DNA from: Erythrobacteraceae bacterium Alg239-R51
GTDB lineage: Bacteria > Pseudomonadota > Alphaproteobacteria > Sphingomonadales > Sphingomonadaceae
Assembly: GCA_947331495.1 (NCBI GenBank)
Contig: CAMZOI010000001.1
Location: forward strand, 1,240,001-1,304,000
Length of the DNA: 64,000 nt
Reading direction: 5' to 3'
Numbering within the stretch: position 1 is the first letter of the stretch; each line of letters begins with the position of its first letter. A program made the translations under genes and the position numbers. Below are positions 52,817-60,512 of the stretch, piece by piece. A model generated the notes under the pieces. The model did no database searches. It was not told the origin of the DNA and saw nothing but the letters and a program-made list of their open reading frames with translations.

Positions 52817-53242
52817 GTGCTTACTTTGAAATTTCGTTTGGTCGTAGGGCTGCTATGTGCGGCGGGTACAGTATCCGCTTCGGCGCAGGATCTGGTGCAT
52901 GAGCCGATCAGTCCCACTTTCGGGGGCAATCCGTTCAATTCCAATCATATCCTTGGCACTGCCAACGCGCAGAACGATTACCGTGACCCCAGGTCCTCGA
53001 CCACCAGTTCGCAGGCCGATATATTTTCCCGCCAGCTACAGTCCCGGTTGCTTTCCGCCCTGTCGTCACAGGTCGTCGACGCGATTTTCGGGGACAATCC
53101 TCAGGAACAGGGGGTCATCAGTTTCGGTGGTCAGACGATCGAGTTCTTCCGCTCGCTTGATTCGGTGACGCTTGTCATCAGAAACGACGAAACGGGCGAG
53201 GAAACCCGCATCGTGGTGCCTTTGTTCGTCGAGGTCGACTGA
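52817..53242 (+). CDS. csgF: Curli assembly protein CsgF
   Basis: A 141-residue protein from GTG 52817, supported by the GAGGAGG ribosome-binding site just upstream. After a signal peptide (LTLKFRLVVGLLCAAGTVSA) the mature N-terminus carries the CsgF signature PISPTFGGNPFNSNHILGTA followed by NAQNDY. In E. coli this region inserts into the CsgG pore. A helix (IFSRQLQSRLLSALSSQVV) and a beta part (QTIEFFRSLDSVTLVIRNDE) follow. CsgF couples curlin secretion to nucleation at the cell surface. Its stop overlaps the csgG start (TGATG). Confidence 0.92.
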   Translation: MLTLKFRLVVGLLCAAGTVSASAQDLVHEPISPTFGGNPFNSNHILGTANAQNDYRDPRSSTTSSQADIFSRQLQSRLLSALSSQVVDAIFGDNPQEQGVISFGGQTIEFFRSLDSVTLVIRNDETGEETRIVVPLFVEVD

Positions 53243-54219
53243 TGGGTCGGATCGTCAGAACTGCTCTGGCCATAGCCAGCTGCATCGGCCTTGCGGGCTG
53301 CATGTCCGTGACTGAACATGGGCGCGATTTTCTGCCCACGGACACGAGCCTGGCCTACTTCCCCAAGCGGACGCAAACGCAGGTTCTGCTGCAGAACCTG
53401 CCGGCCCCGCAACGCGAAGTCGCCGTGGCCGTTTACGGATTCACCGACCAGACCGGTCAGTTCAAACCGACCGAAGCAGGTCAGACATTGTCGCGCGCGG
53501 TAACGCAGGGCGCCAGTTCCATGCTGGTCAAGGCGCTTCAGGACGCCGGCACCCGCCAGTGGTTCACGATCGTGGAGCGCGAGCGGCTGGATAACCTGTT
53601 GAAGGAACGACAGATCATCTCCGAGATGCGCAAGCGCTATCTGGGAGAAGAAGAGGTCAATGCCGGCGCATTGCCTGCGTTGCTGTTTGCCGGCGTTCTG
53701 CTCGAAGGTGGCATCGTCGGATACGATACGAACACGGTCACCGGGGGGGCGGGCGCGGCCTTTCTTGGAATTGGCGGCAGCACCCAGTACCGGCAGGACA
53801 CTGTTACGGTCTATCTGCGCGCCGTATCCGTGCGCACCGGCGAAGTGCTGACGACAGTGACGGCATCCAAGACAATCGCCTCGCGGGCGATCGGAGCCAG
53901 CGCCTATCGCTTCGTGGCATTCAAGGAATTGCTCGAGGCGGAGATCGGTTTCACGACCAACGAGCCGGACCAGGTTGCTCTGCAACAGGCTGTCGAAAAG
54001 GCCGTCTTCGGGCTAGTGATGGAAGGGGTCGAACTCAATTTGTGGCAGTTTGCCGACATGCGTTCCGCAACCCCCTTGCTGGATCTTTATCGCAAGGAAC
54101 GCGATGGAATTTACGAGGCACGCGATGTGCAGAGGGCGGTCCGCAAGGCGGGTTCGTTCGGCGCGCTCAGCGTTGTCGAGGACGACGATGAGGACGAGGA
54201 GAGAAGAGGAGAGTCCTGA
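53242..54219 (+). CDS. csgG: Curli secretion channel lipoprotein CsgG
   Basis: A 325-residue outer-membrane lipoprotein with lipobox LAGC at about 17-20. Family regions include VAVAVYGFTDQTGQFKP and GTRQWFTIVERERLDNLLKERQ. There is also GGIVGYDTNTVTGGAGAAFLG, the long transmembrane-hairpin and constriction part, then QDTVTVYLRAVSVRTGEVL and a C-terminal ELNLWQFADM. CsgG forms the nonameric pore through which curlin subunits leave unfolded. Compared with E. coli (277 residues) it has an acidic tail (VEDDDEDEERRGES) of unknown purpose. It contains a seven-G run at about 53746. A hairpin follows before the first curlin gene. Confidence 0.93.
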   Translation: MGRIVRTALAIASCIGLAGCMSVTEHGRDFLPTDTSLAYFPKRTQTQVLLQNLPAPQREVAVAVYGFTDQTGQFKPTEAGQTLSRAVTQGASSMLVKALQDAGTRQWFTIVERERLDNLLKERQIISEMRKRYLGEEEVNAGALPALLFAGVLLEGGIVGYDTNTVTGGAGAAFLGIGGSTQYRQDTVTVYLRAVSVRTGEVLTTVTASKTIASRAIGASAYRFVAFKELLEAEIGFTTNEPDQVALQQAVEKAVFGLVMEGVELNLWQFADMRSATPLLDLYRKERDGIYEARDVQRAVRKAGSFGALSVVEDDDEDEERRGES

Positions 54220-54280
54220 TCGAAATGAGCTTTAACGACGCGCAGAATTCATAAGGGCGTCGAGAAGGTCGCAAAAGAAC

Positions 54281-54312
54281 GCACGCCCGGAAGCGGCAAC
54301 TCCCGGACGTGC
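54281..54312 (+). repeat. Hairpin between csgG and first curlin gene
   Basis: GCACGCCCGG (54281-54290) pairs with CCGGACGTGC (54303-54312), one mismatch, 12-base loop, no T-run after it. It may stabilise the curlin message or slow transcription. The 185-base gap could also hold a second promoter for the subunit genes. Confidence 0.5.
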
Positions 54313-54404
54313 AAGTAAGTAGGCTGCGATAACCTGGTGATGCCCGGCGTCTCATGCGCCGTGGTCGACGATGGTTATCGCCTTAAACACAAGGTGATGC
54401 AACC

Positions 54405-56357
54405 ATGAAGAACGTACTACTCTATACCGCTTCGGCCGCCGCGCTTGCGCTGGCCCTTCCTGCAATGGCGCAAACCTATACGGGCCAGCAGTCCGACATT
54501 GACCAAACTGGCAACGATAATACCGCGGTGGTTGGCCAGACTGGCAACGAAAACGTCTCGGACATTCTGCAGGATGGTAATGACAACCGTGCAGAAGTCA
54601 CGCAGTCCGATACGCAGCCCGGCTCGGTGGGCTATTCGATCCCGGCAAATCAATCGGACATCAACCAGCAGGGTGATGGCGGTTTTGCTCGGGTCGCTCA
54701 GACTAACGGCGTCGCTGGCGGCGACGGCAATTCGGCCGATATCGACCAGTACAGCGTCGAAGGCTCCGCCACAGGCGGCGCGAATGACACTCCGCCAGCG
54801 GTAACCGTCACTACTTCCGACGGTGTGAGCGCTTCTTTCAACAACGCTGCAACCATCGCCCAGACCGCTGGTAGCGCTGGCGGTCCAAACAGCGCCACAA
54901 TCAAGCAAGGTGATGTAGGTGCGGCGGTTTACGGCAATAACGCCACGATCGACCAGGCAGGCGACGGCAACACCGCAGACCTGTCGCAGCAGGCGCTGGG
55001 TGCCAGCGCGACTGCGATCCAGAATGGCTCGGGAAACACCGCTACGGTGACGCAATCCGATACCACTCTCCTGCAGTCAATCGGTACTGACCCTGACAAG
55101 CCGTACGACCCGGAAGCATATGTCGTTCAGAACGGCAACGATAACACTGCCACCGTTCGCCAGACGGCTGACGTAGGCTCACGCAACATCGTTGCTGACG
55201 TCAACCAGACGAATAATGACAATACGCTTGACCTGACGCAGAACGCGTTGGGCGGAAACGGCTTTTCAGGCACTCTGCGCTCAACCGTGGACCAGTTCGG
55301 CAACTCGAACGCCACGATCCTTCAGGACGCGCAGGTCACGGGCGCGAAGAACTTTTCCGTCGATGTCAACCAGACCGATTCGAACGCCACAATCACTCAG
55401 ACTGGTACAGGCAATGAATCGAAGTGGCTGAAAGCCAACGTTAGTCAGACCGGTGGCTCTACCGCAACGGTGACGCAGACCGCTAATGGAGACGATACTT
55501 CCAACATTGATGCGAACGTAACTCAGGCGAATGGTGCGACTTCGACCACCACACAGACTGCCAATGGTAATGATTCGAACAACATGGACATTATCGTCAT
55601 TCAGGACGGGGCATCGACCTCGACGGTTACTCAGAACTTCGACAATGTCGGCGCAAACACTTTCCTGGCGACCGTAAACCAGACCGGCGACGGCCACAGT
55701 TCGACAATCGATCAGGATGATAAAGCGCCGACCTTCCAGGCCGACTCCGGGTTGACGGCAACAGTCACACAAACTGGTGACCGCAACCGTTCGAACATCG
55801 AGCAAGATAACAAGAGCGCCATTGCAGTCGTCAACCAGAGCGATAGCGACAACAAGGTCGATATCCTTCAGGACGGCGCTGGTCTTAACGCGAACGTTCT
55901 GCAAGCTGGAATATTCAATGATGCCTATGTCAGCCAAATTGGCGGCCTCAATTCGAGCGCAGATATCGACCAGCTGGGTGATAACAGCCGTGCAAATATC
56001 TACCAAGATGCAAGTTCGCGTGACGATACGGCCACTATTCGCCAGCTGATAGGTTCAGACAACAATACCTCGACGATCAATCAGAATGGCCTTTCGGACT
56101 CGCAGTCCTTCAGCATCGCGGTCTCCGAACAGGGTGGTTTCGACAGTGAGTCGACCATTACCCAGAGCGGTCTGAGCAATGAAGCCTATGTCGGACAGTA
56201 CGGTTCAGACAACACCAGCATCGTGACGCAGGTCGGTCTGGGCGGCGGCAACCTCGCCACGGTCGATCAGTACTCCGACAACAACTACTCGAGTGTGTCC
56301 CAGAACGGCGACGGCAATAGTGCCACCGTCACTCAGGGCATGCCCTCGGGAATGTGA
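54405..56357 (+). CDS. Giant curlin-repeat amyloid subunit
   Basis: A 650-residue secreted protein: a signal peptide (NVLLYTASAAALALALPAMA) followed by about 45 short strand units. Each is centred on a Gln flanked by hydrophobic residues, with a G-x-x-N turn (IDQTGNDN, VGQTGNEN, ILQDGNDN, VTQTGDRN, VSQNGDGN). This is the curlin pattern of stacked strand-turn-strand repeats. E. coli CsgA has five repeats in 151 residues; here there are the equivalent of some 20. Acidic residues are common (pI should be very low) and there is no Cys. It should be secreted by CsgG and form the amyloid fibre. It has a C-terminal block nearly the same as that of the next protein, showing duplication. Confidence 0.9.
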   Translation: MKNVLLYTASAAALALALPAMAQTYTGQQSDIDQTGNDNTAVVGQTGNENVSDILQDGNDNRAEVTQSDTQPGSVGYSIPANQSDINQQGDGGFARVAQTNGVAGGDGNSADIDQYSVEGSATGGANDTPPAVTVTTSDGVSASFNNAATIAQTAGSAGGPNSATIKQGDVGAAVYGNNATIDQAGDGNTADLSQQALGASATAIQNGSGNTATVTQSDTTLLQSIGTDPDKPYDPEAYVVQNGNDNTATVRQTADVGSRNIVADVNQTNNDNTLDLTQNALGGNGFSGTLRSTVDQFGNSNATILQDAQVTGAKNFSVDVNQTDSNATITQTGTGNESKWLKANVSQTGGSTATVTQTANGDDTSNIDANVTQANGATSTTTQTANGNDSNNMDIIVIQDGASTSTVTQNFDNVGANTFLATVNQTGDGHSSTIDQDDKAPTFQADSGLTATVTQTGDRNRSNIEQDNKSAIAVVNQSDSDNKVDILQDGAGLNANVLQAGIFNDAYVSQIGGLNSSADIDQLGDNSRANIYQDASSRDDTATIRQLIGSDNNTSTINQNGLSDSQSFSIAVSEQGGFDSESTITQSGLSNEAYVGQYGSDNTSIVTQVGLGGGNLATVDQYSDNNYSSVSQNGDGNSATVTQGMPSGM

Positions 56358-56366
56358 TGACTGATC

Positions 56367-56402
56367 ATCCGGCGGGGGAGTGTTCCCCCGTCGGATTTTC
56401 TT
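56367..56402 (+). terminator. Terminator-like hairpin after first curlin gene
   Basis: ATCCGGCGGGGGA (56367-56379) pairs with TCCCCCGTCGGAT (56384-56396), one mismatch, loop GTGT, then TTTTC. It is strong, but sits only about 25 bases before the next start codon, so it probably acts as a partial terminator within the operon. Confidence 0.8.
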
Positions 56403-56424
56403 TCAGTCCAATAGGGGAATAAAA

Positions 56425-57882
56425 ATGAACAAAGTTCTCACCATGTCCGCTTCGGCGCTTGCGCTTTCTCTCGCCGGCCCCGCCATGGCCCAGCTTTCGC
56501 CAGGTCTTGCCGATTGTGTCGGCGGCACCGCAAACTGCTCGGATATCGACCAGACCGGCAACAACGATGTCGCCACCGTTACGCAGATCGGATCTCGCTC
56601 CGTATCGGATATCGATCAGGCCGGAGCCGGCGCGACGAACTCCGCGACGGTCAAGCAGACTGGCACTGACGCCTCGAATGCCAATGAATCGCTTATCGCA
56701 CAGACCGTGGGGTCCGAAGGCAACAGCGCCTCTGTGACGCAAGAGGGTGAAGGCAACCTTTCAGACGTCTTCCAGGCGGGAGACGACTCGTCCATCGCCG
56801 TTCTGCAGCAAGGCGCAGGCAACAGTTCCGAGGTGGCGCAATCGGACGGAACCAGCAATGGCAGCACCGCGACGGTCAACCAGAACGGTTCGGCCAACAT
56901 CTCGGCCGTGGCACAGCTTGCATCCGATTCCGACGTGACCGTCAATCAAGGCCAGGATGGTGTGACGTCAAGCAGCGGCAATGACAGCTTCGTCGGTCAA
57001 ACAGCTGCGGGTTCGAGTGTGGCCGTTACTCAGGACGGTATCGACAACACCTCGGACGTGTATCAGCTGACGGGTGCCGCCGATATCAATGTGGTACAGT
57101 TCGGCACCGGCAACGCATCCACTGTTCTTCAAGCCGGTCTCTTCTCCACGGTGGATGTAAACCAACAGGGAACCACCAACGTATCGCGCGTTGGTCAGAT
57201 CGCCATCGGCTCGGTCGTCGATGTCGATCAGAACGGCACCAGCAACGATGCCTTGGTCGGTCAGCTTTCGGCCGGTACGGTGGCCAAGGTCGATCAGAAC
57301 GGCACCAACAATGATGCTGCCATTGGCCAGTTGGGCGTAGGCGATTTCGACTACTTCAGCGATCCGACTTACTTCGATATCGATAACAACAGCGACAATT
57401 TCTTCGCCGATATCCAGCAGGTGAACTCGAATAACAGCCTTGTCGCAGGGCAGCTCGGAATCGACAACGAATTGACCGTGCGCCAGACCGGATCCAACAA
57501 CACCGCTGGTGAACGCTGGACCTCGGTTGGTATCGCCCAGATCGGTGAGTTGCAAAAAGCCAGCCTTAACCAAGGCGGAAACTTCAACTCTTCCACGATC
57601 TATCAAGGTCTTGGGGATGGCGGTTCGAGCTTCGACAATATCGCTACCGTTATTCAGGACGGTGATCGGGGCGAGTCGTTCCTTTCGCAGAACGGCTCGG
57701 GCAACGACGCTACGCTGACGCAGCACCTCGGCGGCGACGATAATGTCTCGTCGATCAGCCAGGTTGGCGCGAACAACACAGCGAATGTCGATCAATATTC
57801 GAGCAATAACAGCTCGACGATCAACCAGAACGGAACTGGCAACAGCGCCACCGTTGTTCAGGGTGTCGCACCGACTTCCTGA
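56425..57882 (+). CDS. Second long curlin-repeat amyloid subunit
   Basis: A 485-residue secreted protein from ATG 56425, with AGGGGAAT upstream; an earlier frame start lies within the terminator hairpin. After the signal peptide (KVLTMSASALALSLAGPAMA) there are about 36 Gln-centred strand units (VTQIGSRS, VLQQGAGN, VNQQGTTN, VDQNGTSN, INQNGTGN). One Cys pair occurs near the mature N-terminus (LADCVGGTANCSDID) and is absent from the longer paralogue. An insert FDYFSDPTYFDIDNNSDNFF breaks the repeat near the middle. It is a curlin of major-subunit type. The relative roles of the three subunits cannot be told from sequence. Confidence 0.9.
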   Translation: MNKVLTMSASALALSLAGPAMAQLSPGLADCVGGTANCSDIDQTGNNDVATVTQIGSRSVSDIDQAGAGATNSATVKQTGTDASNANESLIAQTVGSEGNSASVTQEGEGNLSDVFQAGDDSSIAVLQQGAGNSSEVAQSDGTSNGSTATVNQNGSANISAVAQLASDSDVTVNQGQDGVTSSSGNDSFVGQTAAGSSVAVTQDGIDNTSDVYQLTGAADINVVQFGTGNASTVLQAGLFSTVDVNQQGTTNVSRVGQIAIGSVVDVDQNGTSNDALVGQLSAGTVAKVDQNGTNNDAAIGQLGVGDFDYFSDPTYFDIDNNSDNFFADIQQVNSNNSLVAGQLGIDNELTVRQTGSNNTAGERWTSVGIAQIGELQKASLNQGGNFNSSTIYQGLGDGGSSFDNIATVIQDGDRGESFLSQNGSGNDATLTQHLGGDDNVSSISQVGANNTANVDQYSSNNSSTINQNGTGNSATVVQGVAPTS

Positions 57883-57896
57883 CCGAAGCGAAACAG

Positions 57897-57921
57897 GTCG
57901 GGCGGCTTAAGGTCGCCCGAC
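57897..57921 (+). terminator. Hairpin after second curlin gene
   Basis: GTCGGGCG (57897-57904) pairs perfectly with CGCCCGAC (57914-57921), loop GCTTAAGGT, followed by AATTTCTTG. The T-run is weak, so it is perhaps an attenuator or 3'-end stabiliser inside the operon. Confidence 0.65.
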
Positions 57922-57962
57922 AATTTCTTGAATAGGCCTACCCTTTCTATTGGAGAGCGCAG

Positions 57963-58730
57963 ATGACATTCGGAAGCTCACTCAAGATTGCATTCGGTGT
58001 CGCGCTATTCGCAATAACCACACCCATATCTGCGCAGACTGGCCTTAGCGGTGGCGGGGCGGGTACCCACGTTCCCCCCGGCGATCCCTGCGGCAACGGA
58101 CCGGGACGCGGCACGGGCAACCCCTGCGGAGGCAATAACGGCAATTCCGGTGCCAACGGGAATGCAGCGACACCCTTCGTTCCGGACGAAATCGCAATTC
58201 CCGATCAGGACGACCGCGGGGTCTTCATCACCCAGGTCGGAGCTGGCAACTCCGCTCGAGCCACACAGGACAATTCGCGAAGCTACGCGCGCGTGATCCA
58301 GCAGGGCGACGACAATGACGCCAGCCTCACGCAGCGCGACGGCGATCATTATGCGAAGATCGCGCAGGATGGCGATTCCAATACGGCAAACCTCGTACAG
58401 GAAGGTACGCAGACGGTTTTGATGTTGGCCCAGCAAGGCGAGGCGAACATCACCAATGTTTCTCAGACCGAACTTGGCAACAGCTACTCGGCCGCCGCAA
58501 TCAGCCAGAGCGGCGCAGCAAATAGTCTCACGCTCGTCCAGGACGGGACCGACAACCAGGCCCGGCTGACGCAGAATGGCACCGGCAATGCCATGACAGC
58601 GACGCAATTCGGGTCTAGCAATCGTCTTGACTGGACTCAGAACGGCGACGGATTGTCCGACCTTCAGATCGAGCAAACCGGAAATGGCGCTCTGCTGATT
58701 TCGCAGTCCAACTCTGCCGGGGGCGGTTAA
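57963..58730 (+). CDS. Short curlin-repeat protein, possibly nucleator-like
   Basis: A 255-residue secreted protein. A signal peptide (LKIAFGVALFAITTPISAQ) is followed by a Gly/Asn/Pro-rich linker with two Cys (HVPPGDPCGNGPGRGTGNPC, about residues 36-56). About 15 Gln-centred curlin units follow (ITQVGAGN, VIQQGDDN, IAQDGDSN, LTQNGTGN, WTQNGDGL). It is shorter, more regular and more varied at surface positions than the two big paralogues. It carries a unique non-repeat head that could contact CsgF or the membrane, as CsgB does when it starts fibres in E. coli. The nucleator role is inference. It is 11 bases before the next gene. Confidence 0.87.
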   Translation: MTFGSSLKIAFGVALFAITTPISAQTGLSGGGAGTHVPPGDPCGNGPGRGTGNPCGGNNGNSGANGNAATPFVPDEIAIPDQDDRGVFITQVGAGNSARATQDNSRSYARVIQQGDDNDASLTQRDGDHYAKIAQDGDSNTANLVQEGTQTVLMLAQQGEANITNVSQTELGNSYSAAAISQSGAANSLTLVQDGTDNQARLTQNGTGNAMTATQFGSSNRLDWTQNGDGLSDLQIEQTGNGALLISQSNSAGGG

Positions 58731-58741
58731 GGAGCTTCGAC

Positions 58742-59344
58742 ATGACTATGATCGCCACAGCGCTTTTGATGCTTGTCGCTCAGCCGGCGGTCGGCGTCGA
58801 TCAGGTCGGGTCGAGCGCAGAACGGCCTGAGCGCGAGGCAATCGAACAGGTCGGACCCACCGAACGATCGGTCGATCCCATATATGTACAACCGGACACC
58901 GAACAGGAAGCCGACGCGGTTGCACAGATAAGTGCCCGGGAAGTCGAAATCGAACTCGCAACTGTCGAAGGAATTGATCGTTGCAGTGCCGAATTGCTTA
59001 CCGCTCGAGACGCGGAATACTGCGCTCGACGGATCGAAGCGCGGTCAGAGGAATTCGTGACCGACAACGAAGCGAAGCTTACGGCCGAGCAGGTTCTTAT
59101 CGGTGAAAGATTCAGCAATCTTGCGCGTTCGGGTGATATTGCGGGGGCATCGCGCAACGCCGGACGCCGCGATATTTCTGCGGAGGATACAGAATTGCAG
59201 GCACTGGCCTCTCTGACGCTCGTGACCCCTTCCGAACCAGCGACGGTCAGCGAGGAACCCGGCGCGGATGGCGACCTATCGACGGAGACGCAGGCTTTGA
59301 TCGAAGCGATCGTCGAAAATCTGGCAAATCCTGGAGGCGGTTGA
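58742..59344 (+). CDS. Secreted protein of unknown function in the curli operon
   Basis: A 200-residue acidic protein. It has a short hydrophobic start (MTMIATALLMLVAQPAVG), then a low-complexity acidic region. A helical core has two Cys about 15 residues apart (IDRCSAELLTARDAEYCARR), followed by a Glu/Ala-rich helix (ARSEEFVTDNEAKLTAEQVL). No family is recognised. It is encoded 11 bases after the short curlin gene and overlaps the csgH start (TGATG), so it is almost certainly part of the curli operon. By position it could be a chaperone, a fibre cap or an assembly factor replacing the missing CsgE. That is only a hypothesis. Confidence 0.75.
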   Translation: MTMIATALLMLVAQPAVGVDQVGSSAERPEREAIEQVGPTERSVDPIYVQPDTEQEADAVAQISAREVEIELATVEGIDRCSAELLTARDAEYCARRIEARSEEFVTDNEAKLTAEQVLIGERFSNLARSGDIAGASRNAGRRDISAEDTELQALASLTLVTPSEPATVSEEPGADGDLSTETQALIEAIVENLANPGGG

Positions 59345-59682
59345 TGAAAATAGTTTCGGCCCTGATTTTCTCGCTAGGAGCAACGATGCCTGTTTCGCAG
59401 ACTGACGATCACCGCGCAGTAAAACTGTCGGTGGAAGAAAAGGCGGGCGCGGTCGAGGTCATCCTGACCGGTGAGTCGCAGGTCGACCAGCAGGTCGCCT
59501 ACGAATTGCTCATGAAGGGGCGATCCACAAGCCGGCACAAAGGAAAGACGAGCTTGCGGGCCAACCATTCAGCCGTTTTGTCGACCATGCGGATGGATGC
59601 GTCGGAAGAGTGGTGCGTAACGGTAAAGGTAGTCGAATCCGAAGGGTCGACCTACGAATACAGCGAAGGTAATTGCGTCTGA
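59344..59682 (+). CDS. csgH: CsgH-like curli chaperone
   Basis: A 112-residue protein from ATG 59344, which overlaps the upstream stop. A signal peptide (MKIVSALIFSLGATMPVS) is followed by an immunoglobulin-like beta domain with the CsgH/CsgC pattern. That pattern comprises VKLSVEEKAGAVEVILTGES, VAYELLMKGRSTSRHKGKTS, LRANHSAVLSTMRM, then EWCVTVKVVESEGSTYEYSE ending in NCV. Two Cys may form a disulfide. CsgH of alphaproteobacteria is the counterpart of CsgC and stops curlin from forming amyloid too early in the periplasm. Its 3' end overlaps the convergent gene by 31 bases. Confidence 0.82.
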   Translation: MKIVSALIFSLGATMPVSQTDDHRAVKLSVEEKAGAVEVILTGESQVDQQVAYELLMKGRSTSRHKGKTSLRANHSAVLSTMRMDASEEWCVTVKVVESEGSTYEYSEGNCV

Positions 59683-60512
59683 TCGGCCGTTTCGGAGGCT
59701 TCGTCAGCCGCGACATCCGTGGATAGAACCAGCTCGTCATAAACCGGGTCGTAGGAGATCGGGATCCCGGCGATTGCCAGTTGATCGACGGGTACAAAGG
59801 CCATTGCAGCGGGTGAATTCACCAAGCTTTCGTATTCGTCGGGCGGGAATCGATCTTGCAGGAGTTCGAGAAGCGAACTTAGCCTGACAGACATAGTCTG
59901 ATCGGCATCGCTAAATTCCAATTGGCCAACGGAAACGCCATCGACCAAGGCAGCCAAATGCGTTTTGCCGCCAAGGTTGGTCTCGGCAGCAGGAGTAAAC
60001 TCCAGTGGCCTGTGGCGAAGCGTCCCGAAGCTGTCGGTCTTTTCTGCCGGCGCCTTTGCGATATCTACTTTTTCGTCTGAGGATCCGGTTGGTAAGCTGT
60101 CCGTACGTTCTCCAGGTATCTGCCCGATCTGTCCGACCGGAAGTGCAGCCTGAGAGCCCACAGGAATACCTCTCTTAGCGACCGGTTCGTTATTGTTTAT
60201 CGTTGGCGGAGCGTCGGTTTGTATCCCAGCCTCACTGAATGGGATAGTCGATTTCGAGTTTCCCGCTATTTCGCTTGTTCGCGCTGCCTCTGCCGATGTG
60301 GAAGGCAATTCAGGAATATCGGCAGCAGCGCTCCCGACGCAAACAGCCATAGCGCAGGCCGATACATTCAATGTATTACGTACCCACGGTTTGCGCGGTG
60401 CAGGATTAACCAGTCTGTAACCCGGGAAGTTTGCAACCAGAACGTCGACTTCAGTGACGGTCGCAAAGACGCGAAAATCGTCGAATTCGCTGACACGAAA
60501 TGTTCCGTGCAT
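59652..60512 (-). CDS. Membrane-anchored protein of unknown function facing the curli operon
   Basis: A 286-residue product from the ATG at 60512, chosen because GGAGGG lies 8 bases upstream; the open frame reaches 60848 but that part overlaps the gap. About 50 polar residues (MHGTFRVSEFDDFRVFATVT) precede one hydrophobic segment (VRNTLNVSACAMAVCVGSAA). A long Ser/Pro/Glu linker (about 80-165) follows, then a compact C-terminal domain (THLAALVDGVSVGQLEF, MSVRLSSLLELLQDRFPPDE, FVPVDQLAIAGIPISYDPVY). This looks like an inner-membrane anchor with a periplasmic domain. No family is recognised. Its overlap with csgH suggests a link with curli, but it could be unrelated. Confidence 0.6.
   Translation of the reverse strand: MHGTFRVSEFDDFRVFATVTEVDVLVANFPGYRLVNPAPRKPWVRNTLNVSACAMAVCVGSAAADIPELPSTSAEAARTSEIAGNSKSTIPFSEAGIQTDAPPTINNNEPVAKRGIPVGSQAALPVGQIGQIPGERTDSLPTGSSDEKVDIAKAPAEKTDSFGTLRHRPLEFTPAAETNLGGKTHLAALVDGVSVGQLEFSDADQTMSVRLSSLLELLQDRFPPDEYESLVNSPAAMAFVPVDQLAIAGIPISYDPVYDELVLSTDVAADEASETADQTQLPSLYS

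What the first reader, a model, noticed from the sequence alone, without database searches (positions are those of the whole stretch)
52817..59682. Compact alphaproteobacterial curli locus with three curlins and no csgE or csgD
Seen: csgF, csgG, three curlin-repeat genes, an unknown gene and a csgH-like gene run in one direction with overlaps or short gaps (TGATG twice). Known: the E. coli system is two divergent operons with csgD, csgE, csgF, csgG and csgB, csgA, csgC. Inferred: secretion in this organism works without CsgE, or the 200-residue unknown takes its part.
Basis: partly seen in the sequence, partly recalled or inferred. Interest (0 to 1): 0.7.

Follow-up and report, generated by a model that had tools for sequence, protein, structure and literature searches.

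The report
Curli locus with unnamed assembly partners
This bacterium has a curli (amyloid fibre) gene locus with no match to the usual helper CsgE, and its unnamed 200-residue protein belongs to an undescribed family that we found only beside such loci in the genomes sampled and that likely helps to handle fibre subunits on their way out of the cell.

Summary
In detail: csgF, csgG, three curlin genes, a 200-aa unknown and csgH run in one direction at 52817-59682. CsgE has no match in this genome, in 296 genomes sampled from its order, or in 289 from its class. That absence is not new; a 2012 survey reported it for Alphaproteobacteria.

The unknown is the news. It founds an undescribed family (at least 118 database proteins; no Pfam, NCBIfam or PDB family) with two invariant cysteines and an acidic pI. 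All 21 order genomes with it are among the 30 with CsgF. In 26 of 26 loci of one well-supported CsgG clade it follows the last curlin, including loci where csgH was not detected. I infer an exported curlin-handling accessory. It is not a CsgE by sequence; its fold is undetermined.

A second candidate lies just outside the finding: a convergent gene (59652-60512) whose C-terminal domain resembles usher N-terminal domains. Its strong form is in 20 of 33 CsgF-bearing and 0 of 33 CsgF-negative genomes.

T-tailed hairpins lie in 20 of 57 scored curlin-curlin gaps (0.2 expected), suggesting graded expression. No function was tested.

The parts
52817..53242 (+). csgF
   Evidence: PF10614 E 1.2e-30
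53242..54219 (+). csgG, outer-membrane export channel subunit
   Evidence: PF03783 E 1.8e-61; CsgG tree
54405..56357 (+). curlin 1, 650 aa
   Evidence: PF07012, 11 stretches
56367..56396 (+). terminator-like hairpin after curlin 1 (13 pairs, T-rich tail)
   Evidence: RNA fold z -5.87; such hairpins in 20 of 57 curlin-curlin gaps
56425..57882 (+). curlin 2, 485 aa
   Evidence: PF07012, 15 stretches
57897..57921 (+). terminator-like hairpin after curlin 2 (11 pairs)
   Evidence: RNA fold z -2.70, 1 of 200 shuffles as good
57963..58730 (+). curlin 3, 255 aa, short curlin of a distinct type that precedes the unknown in relatives
   Evidence: PF07012, 4 stretches; relatives
58742..59344 (+). 200-aa protein of a new family; signal peptide read by eye; cysteines 81 and 94
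   Evidence: no Pfam, NCBIfam or PDB family
59344..59682 (+). csgH, curlin chaperone homologue
   Evidence: NF041112 42.8 bits, cut-off 35
59652..60512 (-). convergent gene (outside the finding): hydrophobic segment, low-confidence Pro-rich arm, C-terminal usher-N-terminal-domain-like domain

Best explanation
This is a curli (type VIII secretion) locus in a genome with no match to the CsgE model, and its 200-residue protein is a conserved accessory of one CsgG clade that likely is exported to the periplasm and handles curlin subunits before or during their passage through CsgG. Shown: gene content and order; no CsgE match; one CsgG clade in which every locus examined carries the new family next to a curlin; invariant cysteine pair; acidic composition. 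Inferred: Sec export, a C81-C94 disulphide, and binding of curlins (most likely the adjacent short curlin) so that they reach CsgG unaggregated, in series with CsgH where CsgH exists. That would cover part of CsgE's job in E. coli with an unrelated protein.
For: 21 of 296 order genomes carry the family and all 21 are among the 30 with CsgF (Fisher p 1.9e-25, which ignores phylogeny). In 25 of 25 loci compared it directly follows a curlin, at under 25 nt in 20, and csgH follows in 17. Its bearers are one CsgG clade, 26 of 26 rows, support 100/98. It persists in a small plasmid-borne locus with two curlins. Cysteines 81 and 94 are invariant in 122 aligned members. CsgE is not strictly required for export in E. 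coli: more CsgG restores the phenotype (PMC6957492 passages).
Against: No assay. AlphaFold2 gives no confident fold (pLDDT 66). A test for curlin-like strands in its arm failed. Loci L091 and L099 have neither CsgE nor this family. The acidic protein (pI about 4.2) would have to bind acidic curlins (pI about 4.1), unlike the positively charged faces of CsgC, CsgH and CsgE.
Confidence: 0.42

Rival explanations
1. The 200-residue protein is itself exported and becomes a minor part of the fibre (cap, anchor or decoration), working outside the cell rather than in the periplasm.
For: It is encoded directly after the short curlin in 25 of 25 loci compared and kept in 6 of those 25 where csgH was not detected, so it need not act with the chaperone. 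Its flexible-looking, glutamine-motif arm suits attachment to a fibre.
Against: No curlin repeat is detected in it and the arm is not curlin-like beyond shuffles.
Confidence: 0.28
2. CsgE's step is taken by the convergent gene's usher-like domain, tethered on its arm, and the 200-residue protein has another role.
For: Strong form in 20 of 33 CsgF-bearing and 0 of 33 CsgF-negative genomes. Foldseek's eight best matches are usher N-terminal domains, which bind chaperone-subunit complexes (the binding role is recalled). 16 of 20 genomes with the strong form have no usher match.
Confidence: 0.12
3. Nothing replaces CsgE: CsgG of this clade exports curlins by itself with CsgH as the only periplasmic helper, and the 200-residue protein is a dispensable or regulatory add-on.
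For: Loci without CsgE and without the family exist (L091, L099). CsgG overexpression bypasses CsgE loss in E. coli (PMC6957492 passages).
Against: The family was never seen without CsgF in 296 order genomes and persists where csgH was not detected.
Confidence: 0.18

Closest known systems
Escherichia coli curli / type VIII secretion (csgDEFG, csgBAC)
   Same: CsgF, CsgG and curlin-repeat proteins by Pfam; CsgH is the CsgC-like chaperone (PMC4838910 passages).
   Different: No csgE match in the genome, no csgD in the locus, genes in one direction, three curlins of 255-650 aa, plus the unknown.
Alphaproteobacterial csgH curli loci (Dueholm et al. 2012, PMC3521004)
   Same: Lack of csgC, csgD and csgE, csgH next to the curlins, long curlins.
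   Different: The text parts and passages that I saw mention no further conserved gene between curlin and csgH; the order-wide linked family is the addition. I did not see their figures or supplements.
CsgE (PF10627)
   Same: Possible role only: an accessory of curlin export.
   Different: No sequence match; two invariant cysteines and acidic pI against no cysteine and a positive face in CsgE.
Usher N-terminal domain (FimD, Caf1A), for the convergent gene only
   Different: Stands alone at the end of a low-confidence arm with no usher barrel.

Membership tests
Curli / type VIII secretion system | CsgG channel and CsgF | tested here: met
   PF03783 and PF10614 well over cut-off
Curli / type VIII secretion system | Curlin-repeat subunits | tested here: met
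   PF07012 in three genes
Curli / type VIII secretion system | CsgE accessory | tested here: not met
   No PF10627 match in the genome; control rings. In print as absent in Alphaproteobacteria, so I treat it as not defining outside them
Curli / type VIII secretion system | Amyloid fibres made by these genes | not testable with these tools
   Needs Congo red, microscopy and mutants
CsgC/CsgH chaperones (gene 59344-59682) | Match to the CsgH model | tested here: met
   NF041112 42.8 bits over 35; no PDB sequence match with a single-sequence search
CsgE (200-residue protein) | Sequence match to PF10627 | tested here: not met
   No match (37 members scanned)
CsgE (200-residue protein) | Anticodon-binding-like alpha/beta fold | tested here: inconclusive
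   Model pLDDT 66, pTM 0.26, no strands; structural comparison had 4 usable chains
CsgE (200-residue protein) | Caps CsgG and binds curlins | not testable with these tools
   Needs pull-downs or a complex structure
Usher N-terminal domain (convergent gene) | Fold | tested here: inconclusive
Usher N-terminal domain (convergent gene) | Match to a Pfam usher family | tested here: not met
   None for the window protein at E 1 or five relatives at E 0.1
Usher N-terminal domain (convergent gene) | Fused to an outer-membrane usher barrel | tested here: not met
   No PF00577 match in the protein; domain at the C-terminus of a 286-aa protein

The most novel reading that the evidence does not exclude
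Sphingomonad curli run a chaperone-usher-like hand-off in place of CsgE: the Ig-fold chaperone CsgH and the disulphide-stapled 200-residue adaptor present curlins to a detached usher-type N-terminal domain on an inner-membrane-tethered arm, which delivers them to CsgG. Two unrelated fibre export pathways, curli and chaperone-usher, would share a docking module.
Probability: 0.1. Interest if true: 0.88.

Novelty: new variant of a known kind. Interest (0 to 1): 0.58.

Why it matters
CsgE is treated as a core export factor of curli, yet none of the 34 genomes with a CsgF match in the two samples searched has a CsgE match. This work names two concrete candidates for what stands in: a new family that is constant in one curli clade, and a detached usher-like domain. 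Both can be tested by single gene deletions. If either takes over CsgE's step, it shows a second way of moving an amyloid-prone protein through the envelope without aggregation, and adds to the short list of known curli amyloid-control proteins (CsgC, CsgE, CsgF, CsgH).

Tried and rejected
Curlin mimicry of the 200-residue protein's N-terminal arm: a position matrix from 1339 curlin half repeats scored the arms of 37 members no better than shuffles (median p 0.23; 3 of 37 below 0.05). I dropped it as an argument.

Family libraries and PDB sequences gave nothing for the unknown beyond scattered matches in one or two members each. Eight paper searches listed no paper that describes it.

A hidden csgE: PF10627 in the own genome, 296 order and 289 class genomes, none found at E 0.001. 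A very divergent CsgE is not excluded.

Convergent gene as part of an ordinary chaperone-usher system: 16 of 20 genomes with its strong form have no PF00577 match. The window's own genome has one, about 1.16 Mb away. Of 4 ushers found independently by PF00577, one (L188, itself below the PF00577 cut-off) carries the domain at its N-terminus (E 4.6e-5) and three do not. The comparison with usher N-termini (98.3%) is partly circular, since its four rows were found with the same profile; of those four long proteins three match PF00577, one over cut-off.

Same-slot genes in other loci: L110 and L165 hold a diverged protein with glutamine motifs and a cysteine pair before csgH (18-19 bits; hhalign 86.9% over 64 columns), probably distant kin. 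L102/L103 hold a protein without the cysteines, kinship unproven. Aureimonas L167 holds a curlin-like protein there.

Simple promoter and terminator scans of the locus were not above chance in number (4 against 2.3, sd 1.4; 9 against 6.9, sd 3.0); only the two long hairpins, and their recurrence in relatives, are used.

Rows left out: the 122-row alignment omits 11 of the 133 proteins (short, truncated or close to others). The CsgG tree omits L113-L115 (no CsgG found) and L165 (CsgG split over two annotated frames; not given).

Full report
What is there. The locus reads csgF, csgG, curlin 1, curlin 2, curlin 3, unknown, csgH, all on the + strand from 52817 to 59682. CsgF, CsgG and the curlins pass Pfam cut-offs; CsgH passes NCBIfam's (42.8 against 35 bits). 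The unknown has no family. csgF/csgG and unknown/csgH overlap as TGATG. All 12 curlin-repeat matches of the genome lie here.

CsgE and CsgD. PF10627 has no match in the 2.91 Mb genome, in 296 genomes of the order or in 289 of the class; the E. coli control rings each time. CsgF matches in 30 of the 296 (29 over cut-off) and in 5 of the 289 (4 over cut-off). So the absence is a property of the sampled Alphaproteobacteria, as Dueholm et al. 2012 reported (PMC3521004; I read parts 1 and 2 of 5 and search passages; their sentence is inconsistent about csgE within itself). No csgD lies in the locus; the genome has seven LuxR-type HTH matches, none in the window. In three relatives (L087, L088, L089) and in the decayed locus L113 a LuxR-type gene over the PF00196 cut-off sits just upstream of csgF, so part of the order has a neighbour in a CsgD-like place.

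The unknown is a new family. A first search gave 30 proteins, the window's own included. A profile search gave 118, of which only the candidates sharing most words were scored, so this is a lower bound. Where a source names one it is hypothetical or uncharacterised. Named hosts include Qipengyuania, Sphingopyxis, Sphingomonas and Tsuneonella. Pfam, NCBIfam and PDB sequences give no family (37 members). In 122 aligned members Q21, G77, D79, C81, C94, E99, R101, E116, Q153 and A156 are invariant. Eleven or 12 residues separate the cysteines; pI beyond residue 20 is 4.05-5.30; no lipobox-like motif in 122. A signal peptide is my reading of the N-terminus and comes from no predictor.

Linkage. Of 296 order genomes 21 have the family at E 0.001, all among the 30 with CsgF. 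A local search of fetched loci adds G007, so 22 of 30. The other eight are G054, G095, G138, G218, G248, G278 (deletion scar that keeps the family's C-terminus), G290 (diverged relative in the same slot) and G291. Three further same-genus genomes have it (G002, G012, G032). In 25 of 25 loci compared (24 fetched plus the window) it directly follows a curlin; csgH follows in 17, and the NCBIfam model adds G285 (35.0 bits, at its cut-off) and G100 (28.3, below it). In six of the 25 csgH was not detected. The Sphingomonas NY01 plasmid locus has the family (63.8 bits) and no annotated csgH; my single-sequence csgH search found none there, but that search found none of the annotated csgH genes of L167 and L169 and at most one weak match in L168. 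A CsgG tree of 35 rows puts all 26 bearers in one clade, support 100/98. Long branches outside the clade make the placing of those rows unsure.

How it most likely works. In E. coli CsgE binds curlin repeats and CsgG, and its loss can be bypassed by more CsgG (PMC6957492 passages). CsgH inhibits amyloid formation (PMC4838910 passages). A probably exported, acidic, cysteine-paired protein that is encoded directly after a curlin and, where csgH exists, before it fits a subunit-handling role in the periplasm. This is inference. It is no CsgE by sequence, and its fold is undetermined. My specific idea that its arm imitates curlin strands failed its test.

Expression. T-tailed hairpins lie in 20 of 57 curlin-curlin gaps of 25-700 nt against 0.2 expected from base-shuffled gaps, and in 0 of 25 csgG-curlin gaps; 15 curlin gaps outside those lengths were not scored and curlin frames of 500 nt or less were left out. 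The window's two fold with z -5.87 and -2.70. They likely lower expression of the genes downstream of curlin 1; this is untested.

Known and not known. CsgE-less curli with CsgH in alphas are known. Very long curlins are known (up to 62 repeats, PMC10192328 passages). For the 200-residue family, its clade-wide linkage and the usher-like neighbour I found nothing in print with the searches, which cover open-licence PMC papers only.

Noticed in passing
window 59652-60512 (-) and relatives: Convergent gene with a usher-N-terminal-domain-like C-terminal domain; strong form in 20 of 33 CsgF-bearing and 0 of 33 CsgF-negative genomes.
   Followed up: partly
window 56367-56396, 57897-57921 and relatives: Stable T-tailed hairpins between curlin genes, in 20 of 57 scored gaps: possible graded expression.
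   Followed up: partly
L113 3804-4424 (genome G278): One open frame joins the first part of CsgF (PF10614 residues 14-110) to the C-terminal part of the unknown family: a deletion scar of a lost curli locus.
   Followed up: partly
L134 9502-13226 (NZ_CP101724.1, Sphingomonas sp. NY01 plasmid p2): Small plasmid-borne curli locus: csgF, csgG, two short curlins and the unknown, no annotated csgH.
   Followed up: partly
L165 (AP027320.1, Sphingobium sp. TomTYG42): Plasmid-borne curli-type locus with csgH and a diverged relative of the unknown; csgG is annotated as two overlapping frames.
   Followed up: partly
L087, L088, L089, L113 upstream of csgF; L110 at the far end: LuxR-type regulators over the PF00196 cut-off beside curli genes, a possible CsgD counterpart in part of the order.
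   Followed up: partly
L092 3182-4315, L094 9441-10568: A 375-377-aa gene right after the unknown looks by eye like a LuxR/autoinducer-binding protein; Pfam matches are below cut-off or absent.
   Followed up: partly
L123 (NZTV01000008.1): A MAG labelled Microbacterium sp. shows the same start and match scores for the unknown as Qipengyuania flava: probably mislabelled.
   Followed up: no
genus of the window: CsgF in 6 of 24 same-genus genomes of the order sample, and same-genus CsgGs (L089, L099, L101) fall in distant parts of the tree: transfer or differential loss.
   Followed up: no
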